A stretch of DNA of 6,301 bases, from NCBI GenBank assembly GCA_947469815.1, contig CANIRI010000146.1:1-6301 (forward strand). The letters are read 5' to 3'. This document shows, in pieces, positions 1 through 6,301 of this stretch. Each line of letters begins with the position of its first letter. Position 1 is the first letter of the stretch. The DNA is from Comamonadaceae bacterium (GTDB lineage: Bacteria > Pseudomonadota > Gammaproteobacteria > Burkholderiales > Burkholderiaceae_C). Made by a program: the position numbers and the translations under genes. Below the pieces are notes generated by a model. That model was not told the origin of the DNA and did no database searches. It was given only the letters and a program-made list of their open reading frames with translations.

Positions 1-144
1 AAGGACTAAACATCCGAAAACTGCTTCAAAATCTATTTCCATCGATTTATAAAGCGGTATAACAATTAACGTAGCAGCGAAAATTAAAACGATATACGAC
101 ATTGATTTGCCCATTGGAGCTAATCTTTTTAGACTATTAATCAT
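1..144 (-). CDS. N-terminus of an unrecognised membrane protein (partial, runs off the left edge)
   Basis: An open frame starts at the ATG at 144-142 and stays open for 48 codons to the window edge. The start is preceded by an AGGA-type ribosome site four bases upstream. The N-terminus is positively charged (K6, R7, K13). A hydrophobic run at about residues 17-31 (YIVLIFAATLIVIPL) looks like a first membrane helix with the N-terminus in the cytoplasm. A short polar loop (KSMEIDF) and a second hydrophobic stretch follow at the cut end. It lies 46 bases downstream of the 172-residue gene on the same strand, so the two are probably co-transcribed. The family is not recognisable from 48 residues. 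Confidence 0.6.
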   Translation of the reverse strand, partial: MINSLKRLAPMGKSMSYIVLIFAATLIVIPLYKSMEIDFEAVFGCLVL

Positions 145-190
145 GATATCCTGCAATAATTAATTCAGTTGAGAAGTCGATTAAATAACA

Positions 191-709
191 TCATTCATAA
201 TTTATCCCAATACCTCGCAATTCATCTTCAATGATCTTTGCCTCATCGTCATATTTTTTAATGATGTAATGAATTTTCATTTTGAGCTCACGTAATTCGC
301 TGCTCGAATAGTGTCTATTTGTGACAAAAAAATATTTCTTAAAAATCCAAAATCTTGAACTCTCAAATTGTTGCTTTTCGTTTTTTGATGAGCTTATGGG
401 TTGATTGATAATCGGTATCGGTTTTTTGTTAAGTTCTTTGAACGCATATTTTGTAAAAATAGGGGATAATAAAGCTTTAACCTCTCTTGTATTTTCGTTC
501 TCCCCAATTTGCACGCTAATTGTGTAAACTCCAATATCTTTCTCGATGTTGTATATAACTTTCACAAAGTCTTTTTGAGACAATTCGTATAAAGTTGAGT
601 GAATCTCTAGATGGCCGTCAGATTGCGTTCCAATTTCATTATTGGTGGTAGTAAGCGGTGGCGGTTCGCTATCCACAATAGTGGCAAAACATTTGACTTT
701 AAGGCTCAT
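191..709 (-). CDS. Hypothetical protein, 172 aa, probably cytosolic
   Basis: The frame is 172 codons in AT-rich DNA, where chance frames of this length are uncommon. I do not recognise a family. The N-terminal half (about 1-90) alternates short hydrophobic and polar segments, as in a beta-rich fold. Examples are KVKCFATIV near the start and VYTISVQI near residues 61-68. A polar linker rich in Ser, Lys, Asn and Gln follows at about 100-115. An aromatic, basic segment (FWIFKKYFFV) and a charged helix to the C-terminus complete it. There is no signal peptide and no membrane helix. There is no clear Shine-Dalgarno before the ATG, so the start is less sure than the frame. It precedes a membrane-protein gene by 46 bases on the same strand, suggesting a soluble-plus-membrane operon. 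Confidence 0.6.
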   Translation of the reverse strand: MSLKVKCFATIVDSEPPPLTTTNNEIGTQSDGHLEIHSTLYELSQKDFVKVIYNIEKDIGVYTISVQIGENENTREVKALLSPIFTKYAFKELNKKPIPIINQPISSSKNEKQQFESSRFWIFKKYFFVTNRHYSSSELRELKMKIHYIIKKYDDEAKIIEDELRGIGINYE

Positions 710-738
710 ATTATTTAAGCGTTGAGTAAGTGCAAACG

Positions 739-744
739 ATCATA
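739..744 (-). promoter_or_regulatory. Candidate -10 element for the leftward gene pair
   Basis: On the minus strand this reads TATGAT, one base from the sigma-70 -10 consensus. It lies 29 bases upstream of the ATG of the 172-residue gene. The matching -35 region (around 761-767) is poor. In AT-rich DNA such a match can arise by chance. Confidence 0.25.
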
Positions 745-782
745 AATTTCACATTCTGTCTTAAACCTTGGTGTTCTTTGAT

Positions 783-794
783 TCAGGTTCCTGA
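783..794. repeat. Short palindrome in the divergent spacer
   Basis: TCAGG and CCTGA form a perfect 5-bp inverted repeat separated by TT. The same spot also holds GATTC twice, at 780-784 and 793-797. It could be an operator for a dimeric regulator of the leftward genes, since it lies about 75 bases before their start. It is short enough to be chance. Confidence 0.25.
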
Positions 795-1080
795 TTCCGT
801 TTATGGTACTCTAATCGAAAATTTGCCCACATCGGTCGGTAACCACGAGATTTATGTTAGCTTTCGTTGCTGAGATGTTTACTTGTTACCAATCTGGAAA
901 TTGCTTAAGCTGCGCTGTTGCTTATTCAGTGTGAATTCGATGATTTGACGAATCGAGGAGTATGTCAACATCGTAGTCTGAGTAATGTTGGCAAGTCTAA
1001 TCTTAATAGGTAATCAGCAAATAATTTTGAAAATGTTAATCCCATTCCAGTTGTATTAAAAACACTTTGGAGAGAACAAT

Positions 1081-1461
1081 ATGGAAACGATGACTGAAAT
1101 TGTGGAGAATTTCAATACTAGAATGCCCGAAAATGTTGTACGACAAATGGAAAATATAATTCATGAAAACTTGATTCTTGTGGCTACCTTAGCCGAACAC
1201 TTGCCAACTGAAAAATATGATCAATTAAGTCAATCCTTGAACTACCTAATCGCATTTTTTAATTATGTATATCCATTTGTAGAGCCAATTGCATATGGTC
1301 GCCTTGACCAGACGTTTTTAGTCAGGGAAGAATCTAGACAACGTCTTGAGAGGGTTCAAGCGGAGTTAGTGGAACTATTTAGATTTCAACAAGACCGGAA
1401 GCATCTTTTGTTAGATGAGATCACTTCAATCCTCGAAGACTCGCATAGGCGCTATCGTTAA
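1081..1461 (+). CDS. Hypothetical all-helical protein, 126 aa
   Basis: The ATG at 1081 is preceded by GGAGAG at 1069-1074 with a 6-base spacer, a good ribosome site that decides the start. A second Met at codon 4 is possible but less well placed. The product is acidic at the N-terminus and predicted to be mostly alpha-helical. It has a hydrophobic, aromatic middle (about residues 53-72, around IAFFNYVYPFV) and a long charged C-terminal helix from about residue 80 (REESRQRLERVQAELVELF), possibly coiled coil. There are no cysteines, no signal peptide and no catalytic motif that I can see. The next gene begins 16 bases after its stop, so the two are probably translated from one mRNA. The family is not recognised. 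A structural, adaptor or immunity-type role would be a guess. Confidence 0.7.
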   Translation: METMTEIVENFNTRMPENVVRQMENIIHENLILVATLAEHLPTEKYDQLSQSLNYLIAFFNYVYPFVEPIAYGRLDQTFLVREESRQRLERVQAELVELFRFQQDRKHLLLDEITSILEDSHRRYR

Positions 1462-1477
1462 TCTATTCATAGACCCC

Positions 1478-1882
1478 ATGCCCATGAAATTTTTTATCCT
1501 CGTAGTATTGTCTTTCTTGTGCAAAATGACGATCGCAGAGACAACAATTTGGGATGAGCTGCCTGCGAGTCAAAATGCAAGGTTTAAATACTTCAAAAAA
1601 AATGACAAGCTTGGAGTTTTTAAGGCATATCAGGAAATGCGCGGGACGAAATATATCTTCGCTTGTGTCAATGCATTTGTATTTCATCTCTATGCCTACC
1701 AAGATGATTCAATTGAGGATTCTGAGGTCGCCAGGAAGAAATCTGAACGCAAGTGTGCTGAAACATACGAAATTCCAAATTCAACTATCCGGTTTCCATA
1801 CGGCACGCTGATTTTTTTGCGTTTTGAAATAGGCAAAGACCCAGCAGAGAAGATCTATGGTCCAAGCAGAAAAGCCGCCTAA
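1478..1882 (+). CDS. Small secreted or periplasmic protein of unknown function (134 aa precursor)
   Basis: The frame is also open upstream to an ATG at 1415, but that start would overlap the previous gene and bury a signal peptide. I therefore chose the ATG at 1478, with 1484 (Met-Lys-Phe-Phe) equally possible. Neither has a strong ribosome site, so coupling to the upstream stop 16 bases away is likely. From 1478, residues 3-20 form a typical signal peptide: a Lys, a hydrophobic core (FFILVVLSFL) and a likely cut after TIA at residue 20. Cys15 is not in a good lipobox, so a lipoprotein is unlikely. The mature part is about 114 residues with two cysteines (about 63 and 93) that could form a disulfide, and a basic C-terminal tail. 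I recognise no family. Export is inferred from the signal peptide only. Confidence 0.65.
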   Translation: MPMKFFILVVLSFLCKMTIAETTIWDELPASQNARFKYFKKNDKLGVFKAYQEMRGTKYIFACVNAFVFHLYAYQDDSIEDSEVARKKSERKCAETYEIPNSTIRFPYGTLIFLRFEIGKDPAEKIYGPSRKAA

Positions 1883-2040
1883 ATCCAATGATGTATGCCT
1901 AACCAACCAGACCATTGGGCTGGGTTCTGATGAATTGGGTTGATCTGCCTTGGGGCGGGACCGGCTGACTAGTCGACTGGGTGAAAATTGGTTTTGCCAC
2001 CGTGCTGGGAGCGTGAGCCTTGTAGGATGACCGTCAGGCG

Positions 2041-2072
2041 CAGCACCAACTGACCAGCAGGGTAGGGTGCTG
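2041..2072. repeat. 7-bp inverted repeat near the att core
   Basis: CAGCACC at 2041-2047 pairs perfectly with GGTGCTG at 2066-2072 across 18 bases. No T-run follows. It lies directly left of the paired direct repeats, so it may belong to the recombination site architecture. It may also be chance. Confidence 0.35.
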
Positions 2073-2077
2073 AATAC

Positions 2078-2098
2078 GCTACACACTTTGCTACACAC
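2078..2098. repeat. Paired 9-bp direct repeats, possible integrase arm or accessory sites
   Basis: GCTACACAC occurs at 2078-2086 and again at 2090-2098, a 12-base period separated by TTT. The second copy ends 46 bases left of the first base of the tRNA-derived core. Tyrosine integrases and their excisionases often bind short direct repeats flanking the core at such distances. The repeat itself is seen. Its role is inferred. Confidence 0.5.
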
Positions 2099-2144
2099 CG
2101 AAAAAATAGCGTTGATTTCTATAGGTTTTTTAGCCAAGAAACTT

Positions 2145-2189
2145 CTTTTAATCCGTTTGTCGTGGGTTCGACCCCCGCACGTCCCACCA
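2145..2189 (+). pseudogene. 3' fragment of tRNA-Lys(TTT), putative attR of the island
   Basis: The 45 bases match tRNA positions 32-76. They hold the anticodon loop CTTTTAA with anticodon TTT (2147-2149) and the 3' arm of the anticodon stem TCCGT (2152-2156). The variable loop TTGTC comes next, then a T-arm with GTGGG/CCCGC stem (2162-2166 with 2174-2178) and TTCGACC loop. The acceptor strand ACGTCCC (2179-2185), discriminator A and encoded CCA (2187-2189) complete the fragment. The five bases before it (AACTT) cannot form the anticodon stem. The expected acceptor GGGACGT and a D-arm are absent upstream. This is therefore not a working tRNA gene. Identity starting at the anticodon loop is the usual crossover position for tRNA-targeting tyrosine integrases. 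Confidence 0.85.
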
Positions 2190-2205
2190 ACATCATCATG
2201 AAAAA

Positions 2206-2233
2206 GCCACAGTGTTCGCACTGTGGCTTTTTT
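2206..2233. terminator. Bidirectional intrinsic terminator
   Basis: A perfect 9-bp stem GCCACAGTG/CACTGTGGC (2206-2214 and 2219-2227) closes a TTCG loop. Six Ts follow on the plus strand (2228-2233) and five on the minus strand (complement of 2201-2205). On the plus strand it starts 16 bases after the tRNA CCA end, so it is the native tRNA-Lys terminator. On the minus strand it starts 14 bases after the BLUF stop and ends that transcript. Confidence 0.9.
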
Positions 2234-2241
2234 CTTGCGGC

Positions 2242-2691
2242 TTAGGGCAGCTCGGCCTCTTCAACCCTTTGCATCAGCTCGCGCAGCGCCTTGGTATTGA
2301 CCGCTGCTTTGGCGTCCCGTAACGCGTCTTGCAACACCTCACGGATGTCATCGGGTTGGACCAACTCCATGTCCCAGGTCGGGAACATCCGCTCACGCAC
2401 TTCCTCGTTGACAGACAATTCGACCAAGGTGTTGTGGCGCTTGTCTTTCCGAATGTTGTGCATTAATTGCTCAACGCTTTTCTTGGGTCCCTCGAGCCAT
2501 TGAAAAAATATGTCGCCGCCGTAAACCAGGAGTCCCGTGACACCATGGGCGGGGTTCCAACGGCGTGCGGTGGCAATGATGGCCTGTACGTCAGCCTCGG
2601 CCAAGCCGGTCGTGATTCGGCTGCAGTACACGACATTGTGCAGAAGAGTCTCTGACCCTTCGCTTGGCTCGTCATACAAATCTTGATTCAT
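2242..2691 (-). CDS. Short BLUF-domain blue-light sensor protein, 149 aa
   Basis: BLUF domains bind FAD non-covalently and sense blue light through a hydrogen-bond switch around the flavin. The domain spans about residues 16-112. The key positions are present: Tyr22 (VVYCSR), Asn46 (RRWNPAHGVTG), Gln64 in FFQWLEG, and the Trp106/Met108 pair in FPTWDMELV. These match the Tyr, Asn, Gln, Trp and Met positions of AppA-type BLUF proteins. A helical tail of about 37 residues follows, with no EAL, GGDEF or other output domain. It is therefore a short stand-alone BLUF that would act through a partner protein. The ATG lacks an obvious ribosome site but gives a normal N-terminal length. It follows soxG by 106 bases on the same strand. 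Co-transcription with sox is possible but not shown, and a functional link is doubtful. Confidence 0.92.
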   Translation of the reverse strand: MNQDLYDEPSEGSETLLHNVVYCSRITTGLAEADVQAIIATARRWNPAHGVTGLLVYGGDIFFQWLEGPKKSVEQLMHNIRKDKRHNTLVELSVNEEVRERMFPTWDMELVQPDDIREVLQDALRDAKAAVNTKALRELMQRVEEAELP

Positions 2692-2797
2692 GGGGTTTGG
2701 AAGCTAGGGCGGTTGAAGATAGTCCCATTATTGGCTACAAATTCAGCATCGCTTGTCTGACCAGCCATAAAGGCTGATGCAAATACCGATATTGCCC
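2692..2797. other. soxG-BLUF intergenic gap with a weak hairpin
   Basis: CAGCC (2762-2766) and GGCTG (2772-2776) form a 5-bp hairpin with an ATAAA loop, just downstream of soxG. No T-run follows on the minus strand, so it is not a convincing intrinsic terminator. No clear sigma-70 promoter for the BLUF gene is visible in this gap. Confidence 0.3.
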
Positions 2798-3388
2798 TCA
2801 AATCCCGTTCAACTCAACGCCATATTCCAGCGCAACGTCCATCAAAGCCTCGATCTGCCCGTGCGCGTAGGTGCTCAAAAAATACAACTCAAAGTGTTGC
2901 GTATCGAGCCGGTGCAGTACGCACGGGATATGGTGGTGGCCGGTCAGTTGAAATCTCCCGACGGGGAATGCCGCAGGGCGGAAATCCAAGGCGTAGAGTT
3001 TGGCCAGCGCGTCAACCGCCCTCGCGCCATGCAGCTGAACCCGGATGCGGGCGTGGCTAAGGTCCAGTACCGACCCAATTTCGGGAGGGATATGCGAGCG
3101 CAGTTGCGCCACCCGGTCTGGTGCGGGATGCGCACCGATCAACATGAACTCCAGCGGACCGCTGCGCATCAGCAGCCCCGCCTCGCACGCGGTGGCGTGG
3201 CCGGTCTGCGCCGGGGGCATGCACCCAAGTGCGCTGTGCACGGCTTGGGTCAGCGCCTCAATGCCGCTGGCCCAGGTACCCAGCAGCGTGACGCTTTGCA
3301 GGCGCTGCGCCGTCATGTGGACTTGCACCAAGCCCTGGTGGGTCGGGTGCACGGTGTGGCCGGAGCGGGTGGTGGTGGCGTTAGACAC
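2798..3388 (-). CDS. soxG: Sarcosine oxidase gamma subunit (heterotetrameric)
   Basis: The product is 196 residues, close to the usual size of about 200 for SoxG. SoxG is the small structural subunit of the alpha-beta-gamma-delta sarcosine oxidase. Recognisable family segments are DLSHARIRVQLHGARA (about 109-124), the FPVG turn (141-144) followed by a His-rich stretch (GHHHI), and a C-terminal helix ending ALEYG (about 186-190). The start is the GTG at 3388-3386. It overlaps the last 8 bases of soxA and has an AAGGAG ribosome site 9 bases upstream. Longer frames reaching 3472 would extend the product into soxA and are not needed. The overlap implies translational coupling, keeping subunit ratios matched. 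The product acts in the cytoplasm with SoxA, SoxB and SoxD. Confidence 0.9.
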   Translation of the reverse strand: MSNATTTRSGHTVHPTHQGLVQVHMTAQRLQSVTLLGTWASGIEALTQAVHSALGCMPPAQTGHATACEAGLLMRSGPLEFMLIGAHPAPDRVAQLRSHIPPEIGSVLDLSHARIRVQLHGARAVDALAKLYALDFRPAAFPVGRFQLTGHHHIPCVLHRLDTQHFELYFLSTYAHGQIEALMDVALEYGVELNGI

Positions 3389-6301
3389 GGTAGCGCGCTC
3401 CTTGCGGGTCGATGAAGCAGGGTTCCACCACCCGCAGGCGGTATTGGCGCCCCGTGGCGGGAGAGGCAGCAATCACTTCCTCGCCCAGGTGCGTCGTGCC
3501 GCCTTGCAGCAAGCCCAGCGCAATGGCTTTGCCCACTGTCTTGCTAAACGTGGTGGAGGTCACATGACCGCGCCCATGGCCTTGGATCGCGTCTCTGGCA
3601 AAAAACAAAATCGACCCGTTGCTTGGTGGCTCACGCTCGTCCACCGCCTCCAGGCCGACCAGCGTCGGTCGGTTCGGGCGCGCCAGATGCGGGCTGTGGC
3701 GCAAGGCACCGCCCCAGAAACCTTTTGTCTTGCTGGCCATGCGGCCTGCGCCCAAGTCATCCAGCGTCGTACGTCCGTCCATCTCGGACCCGACTACGTG
3801 GCCTTTTTCAATTCGCAAGGAACCCAGCGCTTCCAGGCCGTAGGGCCGCATCTGCCAAGGTTGGCCGCTGGCGAGCACATGTTCCCAGACGCGCAAGCCG
3901 TCGTGCGTGGGCGTGAAAATCTCAAATGCCAGTTCGCCCGAGAAGGTCAGCCGCAGGATGCGCAAGGCCACGCCGTCCAGCGCGCCGCTGCCGTGTGTGT
4001 CCAACAGCCCCATAAAGGGCAGGGCAGCATCGCCCAGGTCCAGGTGCGGGAAGGCCGCTTGCAAGGCCTGCCGCGCCTGCGGCCCCGCCACGCTCATCGC
4101 CGCCCACTGGTCGGTGACCGACGCAACCGTGACCCGCAGTTCCGGCCACACCACTTGCAGCAAAAACTCCAGATGGCTCATCACCTTGGCGGCTTGGGCC
4201 GTGGTGGTCGTCATGAAAAACTGTGTTTCGCTGATCCGTGTGGTGGTGCCGTCGTCCAGCACGATGCCGTCTTCGCGCAGCATGAAACCGTAGCGGGCTT
4301 TGCCCACCGCCAGTTTGGAAAAGCCATTGACGTAGACGCGGTCCAAAAACTCTGCTGCATCCGGCCCCTGCACATCGATCTTGCCCAGGGTCGAGGTGTC
4401 GGCAATGCCCACGCTCTCGCGCACGAAATCCATTTCGGCCTTGTAGGCCTCTGACAAAGTTGCGCCATGCGTGCGGTACCACAGCGGACGCAACCACAAA
4501 CCCGCCTCCAACCGCACGCCGCCGTGCGCCCAATGCCAATCGTGCATCGCGGTGCGGCGTTCGGGTTGGAAGTGTTCTCGAATGTTGCGGCCCGCCAAAA
4601 CGCCCAGCGCCACCGGCGTGTAGGGCGGGCGGAATGTGGTGGTGCCGGCCTGCGCCACGTCCAGCGACCGTGCTTGTGCCATGAGGCTCAGGCCGTTGAT
4701 ATTGGAGGTCTTGCCCTGGTCCGTGCCCATTCCCAGCGTGGTGTAGCGCTTCAAATGCTCCACCGATACATAGCCTTCGCGCTGCGCCAACTCCACATCG
4801 GCGGTGGACACGTCGTGTTGAAAGTCCAGAAAAGCCTTGTCGCGGGGATGCGCGCTGAGCAGCGGCGGCGCGGGCACAAAGGCCATGGAATCGGGTAGCG
4901 CATCTTCCCAGGCGGGTATTGCTCGCGCTGCAGCTTGTAACCCCAATACCTGTGCTGCCTGCGCGCCCGCTTGGACTCCGCTTTCTATCCCCTGCGTCCA
5001 GCCCTGGGTTCCCACCATGCTGCCTGCGCCGAACTGGGCGCGGTCGAAACCGCCAGGCACAAAACAGGCGATAGCCGGGTCGTACTTCGGTTTCACGTTG
5101 CGGTGTGAGGTGAGGTGCACAGTCGGCGTCCAACCGCCGGACATGCCGATCAGATCGACGTCAAGTTGCAGTCCGTTGGACAGGTAGGCTTTGCGCACAT
5201 GGCTGCCGCCGGTCACATCGGTCAGGGCCACGCCAGTCATCAGCTCGATGCCCGCAGCGCGCGTGGCGCTCTGTACATCGGTGTGGGGCTGGCTGCGCAA
5301 ATCCGCTACCCGCACCTGCGCTCCCGCGCGGGCCAGTGCCAGCGCATCGGCATAGGCCGCGTCGTTGTTGACGCAAAACAACGCACGCTGTCCGGGTGCC
5401 ACGGCATAGCGGTTGACGTACTGGCCGATAGCGTTGCTCAGCATCACGCCCGGTTTGTCGTTGCCCGCGAACACCAGCGGACGCTCAATCGCTCCGCAGG
5501 CCATCACGATGGATGCGGCGCGCACGGTGTGCTGGCGCTGGCGCGGAATCCCGTATTCGGCATCGGCCACGCCGGGCGCACTGCGCTCCACCACGCCGAC
5601 GGTATTGCCGTCGTAGATGCCAAACGCTGTAGCGCGGGTGAGGGTGCGCACCCTGCCGGTGGCAGCAATCTGCGCCAGCATTTCGGCGCGCCAACGCGCC
5701 GCAGCGCTGTCCACTGCGTGGTTGAGCAGCGCGCCGCCGACTTCAAAGTCCTGCTCCACCAGCAGCACATCGGCACCGGCGCGGGCCGCGGTCAATGCAG
5801 CTGCCAGCCCCGCCGCGCCCGAACCGATGACCAGCACGTCGGTATAGACGTTGTGCCAGTCGTAGCGGTTCACATCAAAGTCATCCACGCTGGCACCCAA
5901 ACCGGCGGCTTTGCGGATGAAGTGTTCGTAGAACATCCACGCGTGGCGCGTCGGCCCCATGAAAGTCTTGTAATAAAAACCGGCCACAAACACCGGCGAC
6001 AGCAGGTTGTTGATCGCCATCAGGTCAAACTTGACCGAAGGCCAGGCGTTTTGCGTACGCGCCACCAGCCCGTCTTCAACTTCGGCCACGGTCGCGGCGA
6101 TATTGGGCTCGCGTGTGCCACCGTCACCAAGAGTCAAGAGCGCGTTGGGCTCCTCCACGCCCGCAGCCATGATGCCGCGCGGGCGGTGGTATTTGAATGA
6201 GCGCGCCACCAGATGCTCGCCATGGGCCAGCAGGGCAGATGCGAGCGTGTCGCCGGCGTAGCCCTGGAAGGTCTTTCCGTCGAGCGTGAAGCTCAGGCTG
6301 T
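3381..6301 (-). CDS. soxA: Sarcosine oxidase alpha subunit (5' end cut by the window edge)
   Basis: The frame runs unbroken from the right edge to a TAA at 3383-3381, giving 972 visible residues. SoxA proteins are about 970-1000 residues, so only a short N-terminus is missing. A GTG at 6209 is not the start: 30 in-frame residues before it (SFTLDGKTFQGYAGDTLASA and on) match the family N-terminus. Domains in visible numbering are a ferredoxin-like N-terminal fold without Fe-S cysteines (about 1-60, ending SFKYHRPRG) and a dinucleotide-binding domain with VIGSGAAGL (from about 157) for NAD+. Next come a conserved YTTLGMGTDQGK segment (519-530) and a C-terminal GcvT-like, folate-binding domain from about 630. 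The tetramer oxidises sarcosine to glycine and hydrogen peroxide, passing the methyl carbon to tetrahydrofolate. The usual order is soxB-soxD-soxA-soxG, so soxD should lie beyond the edge. Confidence 0.95.
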   Translation of the reverse strand, partial: SLSFTLDGKTFQGYAGDTLASALLAHGEHLVARSFKYHRPRGIMAAGVEEPNALLTLGDGGTREPNIAATVAEVEDGLVARTQNAWPSVKFDLMAINNLLSPVFVAGFYYKTFMGPTRHAWMFYEHFIRKAAGLGASVDDFDVNRYDWHNVYTDVLVIGSGAAGLAAALTAARAGADVLLVEQDFEVGGALLNHAVDSAAARWRAEMLAQIAATGRVRTLTRATAFGIYDGNTVGVVERSAPGVADAEYGIPRQRQHTVRAASIVMACGAIERPLVFAGNDKPGVMLSNAIGQYVNRYAVAPGQRALFCVNNDAAYADALALARAGAQVRVADLRSQPHTDVQSATRAAGIELMTGVALTDVTGGSHVRKAYLSNGLQLDVDLIGMSGGWTPTVHLTSHRNVKPKYDPAIACFVPGGFDRAQFGAGSMVGTQGWTQGIESGVQAGAQAAQVLGLQAAARAIPAWEDALPDSMAFVPAPPLLSAHPRDKAFLDFQHDVSTADVELAQREGYVSVEHLKRYTTLGMGTDQGKTSNINGLSLMAQARSLDVAQAGTTTFRPPYTPVALGVLAGRNIREHFQPERRTAMHDWHWAHGGVRLEAGLWLRPLWYRTHGATLSEAYKAEMDFVRESVGIADTSTLGKIDVQGPDAAEFLDRVYVNGFSKLAVGKARYGFMLREDGIVLDDGTTTRISETQFFMTTTTAQAAKVMSHLEFLLQVVWPELRVTVASVTDQWAAMSVAGPQARQALQAAFPHLDLGDAALPFMGLLDTHGSGALDGVALRILRLTFSGELAFEIFTPTHDGLRVWEHVLASGQPWQMRPYGLEALGSLRIEKGHVVGSEMDGRTTLDDLGAGRMASKTKGFWGGALRHSPHLARPNRPTLVGLEAVDEREPPSNGSILFFARDAIQGHGRGHVTSTTFSKTVGKAIALGLLQGGTTHLGEEVIAASPATGRQYRLRVVEPCFIDPQGARYRV
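3398..3403 (-). promoter_or_regulatory. Ribosome binding site of soxG
   Basis: On the minus strand this reads AAGGAG, 9 bases before the GTG at 3388-3386. It lies inside the end of soxA and supports the GTG as the soxG start. Confidence 0.7.

What the first reader, a model, noticed from the sequence alone, without database searches (positions are those of the whole stretch)
2145..2189. Truncated tRNA-Lys marks the distal attachment site of an undescribed island
Seen: 45 bases equal to tRNA-Lys(TTT) positions 32-76 with CCA, no 5' half, and a sharp change from AT-rich unknown genes to GC-rich conserved genes. Known: tyrosine integrases target tRNA 3' ends, and crossover at the anticodon loop is common. 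Inference: the 45 bases are the attR copy, the intact tRNA-Lys lies to the left in the same orientation, and everything between is mobile.
Basis: partly seen in the sequence, partly recalled or inferred. Interest (0 to 1): 0.7.

Follow-up and report, generated by a model that had tools for sequence, protein, structure and literature searches.

The report
Displaced tRNA-lysine half marks island end
The last 45 bases of a lysine tRNA gene lie stranded here between AT-rich DNA that was not found in two sister species and chromosome that they share, which likely marks the far end of a mobile gene island predicted to insert itself at the tRNA's anticodon loop; the kind of event is well known.

Summary
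Confirmed. Window 2145-2189 equals bases 32-76 of a tRNA-Lys(TTT) that is intact beside the same BLUF gene in two sister species. Alignment to both begins exactly at 2145; the left flank they share is replaced here by 2.1 kb of AT-rich DNA with no match in either. The partner end cannot be shown: the window is a whole contig of a 75%-complete metagenome genome in which no tRNA-Lys was found and whose one tyrosine-recombinase match is XerD-like. Relatives supply it: an integrase of about 460 aa lies 161-208 bp downstream of intact tRNA-Lys(TTT) in four congeners. The window's island end has two CTACACAC repeats 12 bp apart, 66 bp before the crossover; such pairs, at 66 or 76 bp, precede displaced tRNA halves in nine loci with this integrase family, so they are probably its arm sites. 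The kind of event is textbook. Less ordinary features were seen only in relatives: a second, core-only recombinase, and a group I intron at the crossover of tRNA(CAT).

The parts
1..2144 (.). distal part of the inserted island (continues to the left beyond the contig)
   Evidence: GC 0.381 against 0.626 on the right; no DNA match in sister genomes G005, G113, G038
191..709 (-). ORF, 172 aa, unknown family; island cargo
   Evidence: 21 relatives among about 5.8 billion proteins; family found in 1 of 399 genomes of the bacterial family, the own one; poor structure model, mean pLDDT 48.5
1081..1461 (+). ORF, 126 aa, unknown; island cargo
   Evidence: 3 database proteins including an identical record; no family match over cut-off
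1484..1882 (+). ORF, 132 aa, unknown; N-terminus resembles a signal peptide (by eye, not tested)
   Evidence: 8 database proteins; conserved alignment; model without significant PDB match
2079..2086 (+). CTACACAC repeat 1, likely integrase arm site, 66 bp before C32
   Evidence: 0 of 400 shuffles reach the score of the pair
2091..2098 (+). CTACACAC repeat 2, likely integrase arm site, 54 bp before C32
2145..2151 (+). CTTTTAA, anticodon loop (bases 32-38), likely strand-exchange region
   Evidence: homology to both empty sites begins at 2145; sequence checked
2145..2189 (+). displaced 3' half of tRNA-Lys(TTT), attR
   Evidence: 45 of 45 bases equal to bases 32-76 of the G005 tRNA; 5' half 6 of 31
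2201..2232 (.). palindrome, likely the native terminator of tRNA-Lys that stayed with the displaced half
   Evidence: self-match on the other strand; the same palindrome follows the intact tRNA in G005 and G113
2242..2691 (-). BLUF photoreceptor gene, first chromosomal gene right of the island
   Evidence: Pfam BLUF 98.4 bits; 81% identical in G005, 80% in G113
2798..3406 (-). sarcosine oxidase gamma-like gene
   Evidence: TIGR01375 84 bits, under cut-off
3381..6299 (-). sarcosine oxidase alpha-like gene, runs off the contig
   Evidence: TIGR01372 1170.8 bits

Best explanation
The 45 bases at 2145-2189 are the last 45 bases of a tRNA-Lys(TTT) gene that is whole at this spot in two sister species, and they are likely the far attachment site (attR) left when a mobile island, predicted to be moved by a tyrosine integrase, went into the anticodon loop of that gene. 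Shown: the tRNA half, the exact start of homology to both sister genomes at base 2145, the replaced left flank, and the paired CTACACAC repeats 66 and 54 bp before the crossover. Inferred: the circular island carried its own copy of the tRNA-Lys 3' half with its own terminator; the integrase, bound to the paired repeats, exchanged strands in the CTTTTAA loop; the host's 5' half was joined to the island's 3' half, so a working tRNA-Lys was kept, and the host's 3' half with its terminator was pushed to the distal end, where the window shows it beside BLUF. Predicted: the missing attL lies to the left, with an intact tRNA-Lys in the same orientation followed about 200 bp on by an integrase of the 460-aa family seen at tRNA-Lys(TTT) in G010 and G133.
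For: Two empty sites: alignments of the window to G005:C186 (2145-4649, 82.4%) and G113:C339 (2145-6301, 84.2%) both begin at 2145, where both have an intact tRNA-Lys(TTT), and both keep a left flank that is absent here. Window 1-2144 has no DNA match in G005, G113 or G038, and its 172-aa gene family is in 1 of 399 family genomes, the own one. The island end (2027-2144) is 99 of 119 alignment columns identical to the end next to another Lys half in G055. Integrase genes lie 161-208 bp downstream of intact tRNA-Lys(TTT) in G010, G133, G037 and G129. The repeat pair scores 16 of 16 with 0 of 400 shuffles; in nine loci with this integrase family such a pair lies 66 or 76 bp before a displaced tRNA half. 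G055 has the G010-type attL behind its tRNA-Lys and the window-type attR on another contig.
Against: The partner end is not in the assembly: no tRNA-Lys among 28 tRNAs found, no relative of the integrase in the own genome, and the only Phage_integrase match is XerD-like. The integrase family is present in only 21 of 103 congeners, and 39 of its 72 loci in named genomes showed no tRNA within 900 bp upstream. Six of 20 orphan halves examined have no clear repeat pair, so not every such island uses this system. The second Lys-like half of the own genome (C13) also lacks it.
Confidence: 0.83

Rival explanations
1. Assembly chimera: the island end with its tRNA half belongs to another species of the sample and was joined to this species' BLUF side through the 45 bases, which many congeners share exactly.
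For: The genome is a metagenome bin of 317 contigs with 3.72% contamination; many congeners have the same 45 bases at 100%, long enough to mislead a short-read assembler.
Against: The left side carries a real island end at the phase expected for a Lys half, so at most two true attR sites were mixed; the contig was binned as one. No reads could be examined.
Confidence: 0.07
2. A chance rearrangement (deletion or translocation breakpoint inside tRNA-Lys), with no integrase involved.
For: Only one end is visible; a broken tRNA next to foreign DNA would look alike at first sight.
Against: The break falls at the anticodon loop, the usual subsite (2083 of 3919 Islander islands, PMC4383910, passages read). 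The repeat pair stands at the distance seen in complete islands, and the end is 83% identical to one at another Lys half in G055.
Confidence: 0.03
3. The island was inserted as described but is now an immobile remnant, with the integrase or attL decayed.
For: Relatives show decay: only an N-terminal stub of the integrase remains at tRNA-Lys in G002:C174 and behind an orphan half in G130:C61. In G055 chromosome-like genes follow soon after the island end (by eye).
Against: The repeat pair and the 45-base half are intact in the window, as an active attR would need; nothing in the window shows decay.
Confidence: 0.3

Closest known systems
tRNA-gene genomic islands of the Islander type, anticodon subsite (PMC4383910; abstract and passages read)
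   Same: Tyrosine-integrase insertion that splits a tRNA gene, restores it and leaves a displaced 3' fragment; anticodon-centred site, as in 2083 of 3919 Islander islands; 3' fragment, as in 3760.
   Different: Only one end is in hand here. Whether Islander lists this integrase family was not checked.
The 460-aa integrase islands found here (G137, Limnohabitans sp. B9-3 and others)
   Same: Same paired CTACACAC repeats 12 bp apart before the displaced tRNA half, same crossover loop, AT-rich interior.
   Different: The window shows neither the integrase nor the second recombinase. Its pair is at -66, as in G055, G030 and L291; the CAT-tRNA islands have it at -76.
Tycheposons and tRNA-Lys additive islands of Methylophilaceae (PMC10872708; passages read)
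   Same: Flexible islands in freshwater Burkholderiales bordered by a tRNA, with a tyrosine recombinase; one type recurs at repeats of tRNA-Lys(CTT).
   Different: There the Lys repeat is 20 bases of the CTT gene; here it is 45 bases of the TTT gene. Homology of the recombinases was not tested.
Partial tRNA genes left by integrating elements (PMC9897764; abstract read)
   Same: A partial tRNA gene that results from integration.
   Different: That paper treats fragments called as whole tRNAs; here ARAGORN calls nothing, so the scrap is missed instead.

Membership tests
Genomic island in a tRNA gene (Islander class) | Displaced tRNA fragment at one end | tested here: met
   45 of 45 bases, 5' half absent
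Genomic island in a tRNA gene (Islander class) | Uninterrupted site in close relatives | tested here: met
   G005 and G113
Genomic island in a tRNA gene (Islander class) | Regenerated intact tRNA at the other end, same orientation | tested here: inconclusive
   No tRNA-Lys found in the incomplete own genome
Genomic island in a tRNA gene (Islander class) | Integrase gene inside the island | tested here: inconclusive
   None in the 2.1 kb held; the rest of the island is not in the contig
Islands of the 460-aa integrase family (alignment A3) | Paired repeats 12 bp apart at 66 or 76 bp before the displaced half | tested here: met
   16 of 16 at -66 in the window; rule derived from nine integrase loci
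Islands of the 460-aa integrase family (alignment A3) | Integrase of this family downstream of the intact tRNA | tested here: inconclusive
   Own genome: 0 matches, but the left end is missing
Islands of the 460-aa integrase family (alignment A3) | Second, core-only tyrosine recombinase inside | tested here: inconclusive
   Not in the 2.1 kb held; in relatives 15 of 24 loci
Tycheposon | tRNA at the border plus a tyrosine recombinase (as described in PMC10872708) | tested here: inconclusive
   tRNA half present, recombinase not in the contig
Prophage or integrated plasmid | Relatives in phage, viral or plasmid records | tested here: not met
   G010 integrase: 0 phage records, 4 plasmid records at 21-34% identity. 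Island-end pattern: 0 in viral contigs. Two of the three cargo proteins: 0 in viral contigs

The most novel reading that the evidence does not exclude
The window shows the attR of an undescribed family of small (6-10 kb in five complete relatives), AT-rich islands of Burkholderiales, neither phage nor plasmid as far as tested, that carry two tyrosine recombinases, a long arm-binding integrase at attL and a 190-aa core-only partner, and that retarget between the anticodon loops of Lys(TTT), Lys(CTT) and CAT tRNAs while keeping their arm sites on one helical phase; CAT-targeting members bring a group I intron inside the tRNA half they supply, so that the host's tRNA works again only after RNA splicing.
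Probability: 0.5. Interest if true: 0.6.

Novelty: new member of a known kind. Interest (0 to 1): 0.38.

Why it matters
A 45-base scrap that the tRNA finder did not report pins the exact edge of an island in a fragmented metagenome genome. tRNA-Lys(TTT) turns out to be a shared landing place for several island lineages in this genus. The phased repeat pair before the crossover is a ready signature for finding the ends of such islands in draft genomes. The wider family offers a testable system: one integrase scaffold with different tRNA targets, a second recombinase of unknown role, and an intron placed on the crossover itself.

Tried and rejected
Phage or plasmid origin found no support. A defence cargo was looked for: best PADLOC match E 0.02, not convincing. 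Cargo folds: one model too poor to search; the other had no PDB match at E 0.001 or better, and its PDB sequence search was empty. The second Lys-like 3' half in the own genome (C13:8856-8900, 36 of 45 bases) was considered as the partner of this site and rejected: it too is an orphan half, diverged and without the repeat pair. The own C59 recombinase was considered as the island's integrase and set aside as XerD-like (243 bits over a 177-aa piece, under the whole-protein cut-off). The idea that the group I intron belongs only to these islands was weakened: 17 of 103 congeners match it, at least one (G033) only in part, and only 3 of the 20 match loci have one of the queried integrases nearby. 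No paper linking a bacterial group I intron with an integrase attachment site showed in the listings; an archaeal proposal that a mobile element brought a tRNA intron exists (PMC3293823, abstract read).

Full report
What was checked. The 45 bases at 2145-2189 are exactly bases 32-76 of a tRNA-Lys(TTT), from C32 of the anticodon loop to the CCA end, with no 5' half. GC changes from 0.381 (1-2144) to 0.626 (2145-6301). The window is a complete contig, C146, of an unnamed metagenome-type genome of 2.31 Mb in 317 contigs, 75.15% complete, 3.72% contaminated.

Empty sites. Of 101 genomes searched, 69 have some BLUF match, but besides the own genome only G005 (81%) and G056 (70%) have the window's type; the next is at 43%. 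G005 has an intact tRNA-Lys(TTT) beside it, and so has G113. The window aligns to G005:C186 from 2145 to 4649 (82.4%) and to G113:C339 from 2145 to 6301 (84.2%); both alignments start at base 2145. Left of the tRNA the two sisters are 90% identical over 1831 bases, with a TcdA-like gene next to the tRNA (231 bits, under the NCBIfam cut-off of 304). That flank gives no match in the own genome except tRNA-like stretches, and window 1-2144 has no match in G005, G113 or G038. This is the pattern of a site-specific insertion at the anticodon loop. In G056 the BLUF and tRNA-Lys loci are on different contigs, so that species is uninformative.

What is missing. The own genome yields 28 tRNAs, none for Lys. 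It has one Phage_integrase match, XerD-like, and no relative of the integrase described below.

Other islands at the same tRNA. Among the loci scanned (the window and 35 loci picked from earlier hits, not a survey), seven other congeners (G018, G055, G022, G008, G140, G124, G130) have orphan TTT-type 3' halves matching 43-45 of 45 bases with at most 13 of 31 bases of the 5' half. Their 5' sides are of several unlike kinds by eye, so more than one island lineage uses this tRNA. The window's island end (2027-2144) is identical in 99 of 119 alignment columns to that of G055. Weaker matches lie at a Lys(CTT) half in G030 (73%) and at CAT-tRNA halves in G011 and G137 (69%).

The integrase. G137:C1 carries a complete 10.1-kb island with such an end; next to its tRNA is a 473-aa protein with a Phage_integrase match (31.7 bits, cut-off 27.1). 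Relatives were found in 21 of 103 congeners. At tRNA-Lys(TTT) the gene starts 161-208 bp downstream on the same strand in G010, G133, G037 and G129. G002 has an N-terminal stub at the same place, and G130:C61 has one behind an orphan half. In named genomes 72 loci were found. In 33 of 72 a tRNA was detected within 900 bp upstream (Lys(TTT) 7, Lys(CTT) 3, CAT 21 of which 10 with an intron, two others); in 39 none was.

The arm-like repeats. The window has CTACACAC at 2079 and 2091, 66 and 54 bp before C32; 0 of 400 shuffles reach this score. Of 20 orphan halves examined there, four (window, G055, G030, L291) have the pair at -66, seven at -76, three have a related pair at -81, and six have none that stands out (10 of 16 or less; 11 to 389 of 400 shuffles reach it). 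Many of these 20 had been picked because the integrase or a similar end was present. A scan downstream of the integrase in 57 loci (45 with at least 1 kb to scan, 27 with at least 6 kb) gave 13 pairs scoring at least 13 of 16, in nine loci. In each of the nine, one pair lies 76 bp (eight loci) or 66 bp (one) before a displaced tRNA half; three further rows are the same sites read one or two repeats earlier, and one row (L301) has no tRNA half after it. Two positions 10 bp apart, about one helical turn, and a repeat spacing of 12 bp suggest arm sites bound by the integrase (inference). On the attL side the islands of G010 and G002 have CTACACAC pairs, G133 the same with one base changed, while G037 and G129 have CTACGCAC. 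G055 has the G010-type sequence behind its tRNA-Lys and the window-type attR on another contig. Hence the prediction that the window's missing integrase is of the G010/G133 type.

Cargo. Three small ORFs without a known family. The database of about 5.8 billion proteins holds 21, 8 and 3 matches to them, identical records included. The 172-aa family occurs in 1 of 399 family genomes, the own one. That fits accessory cargo; what it does stays open. The 132-aa protein has a signal-like N-terminus (by eye), so my guess is that it is exported.

Comparison with the known. Tyrosine-integrase islands that split a tRNA gene and displace its 3' part are textbook; Islander counts 2083 of 3919 with an anticodon site and 3760 with a 3' fragment (PMC4383910, passages). 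The window is a new member of that kind. What sets its likely family apart was seen only in relatives. Five of five complete islands examined (L249, L250, L256, L262, L275) encode a second, core-only tyrosine recombinase of 188-200 aa. Across 45 of the 72 integrase loci, 15 of 24 with at least 7 kb downstream have such a frame (at most 300 aa) there, against 2 of 38 with at least 7 kb upstream (Fisher p = 1.3e-6). Five of the 15 helped to build the model; without them it is 10 of 19. In the listings of searches I saw no paper on such a family.

Verdict. Observation confirmed, interpretation supported, left end unproven. Interest is moderate: ordinary in kind, useful as an entry to an apparently undescribed island family.

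Noticed in passing
L247 9611-9899, L249 42-328, L250 9619-9901, L262 9619-9901, L279 7885-8174, L294 9615-9898, L296 9619-9901, L299 9623-9905, L302 4279-4561, L311 4161-4442: In 10 loci the CAT tRNA just upstream of this integrase has an intron of about 205-213 bases in the anticodon loop, at the crossover site; in G137 it matches Rfam group I introns at 42.4 bits, E 1.3e-9, under the gathering score of 50. The displaced 3' halves of L249, L250 and L262 are intron-free, as if the island had brought the intron. The intron also occurs in congeners without these integrases nearby.
   Followed up: partly
L249 5925-6497, L250 17152-17721, L256 12691-13275, L262 15251-15814, L275 12644-13243: A second, core-only tyrosine recombinase of 188-200 aa with the usual catalytic residues (by eye) lies inside all five complete islands examined. 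Its role is unknown.
   Followed up: partly
L005 (own contig C13) 8628-8900: A second, diverged Lys-like 3' half (36 of 45 bases) lies at 8856-8900. About 200 bases before it, on the other strand, is a stretch that resembles a tmRNA 3' end (recalled resemblance, not tested).
   Followed up: partly
L157 (G130:C61) 7260-7720: Apparent tandem islands at tRNA-Lys: one island end, an orphan Lys half, then the G010-type attL sequence with an integrase stub.
   Followed up: partly
L148 (G140:C22) 6255-8613: A tRNA-Asn at 7376-7451 with an integrase gene just before it (6255-7295) and a 44-of-45-base copy of its 3' half at 8569-8613, enclosing only two small ORFs: perhaps a miniature island.
   Followed up: no
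window 1081-1461: The database record identical to this protein stands for 8 contigs, the longest 16,792 bases, so a longer version of the island may already be sequenced; the record identical to the neighbouring protein has contigs of at most 2,490 bases.
   Followed up: no
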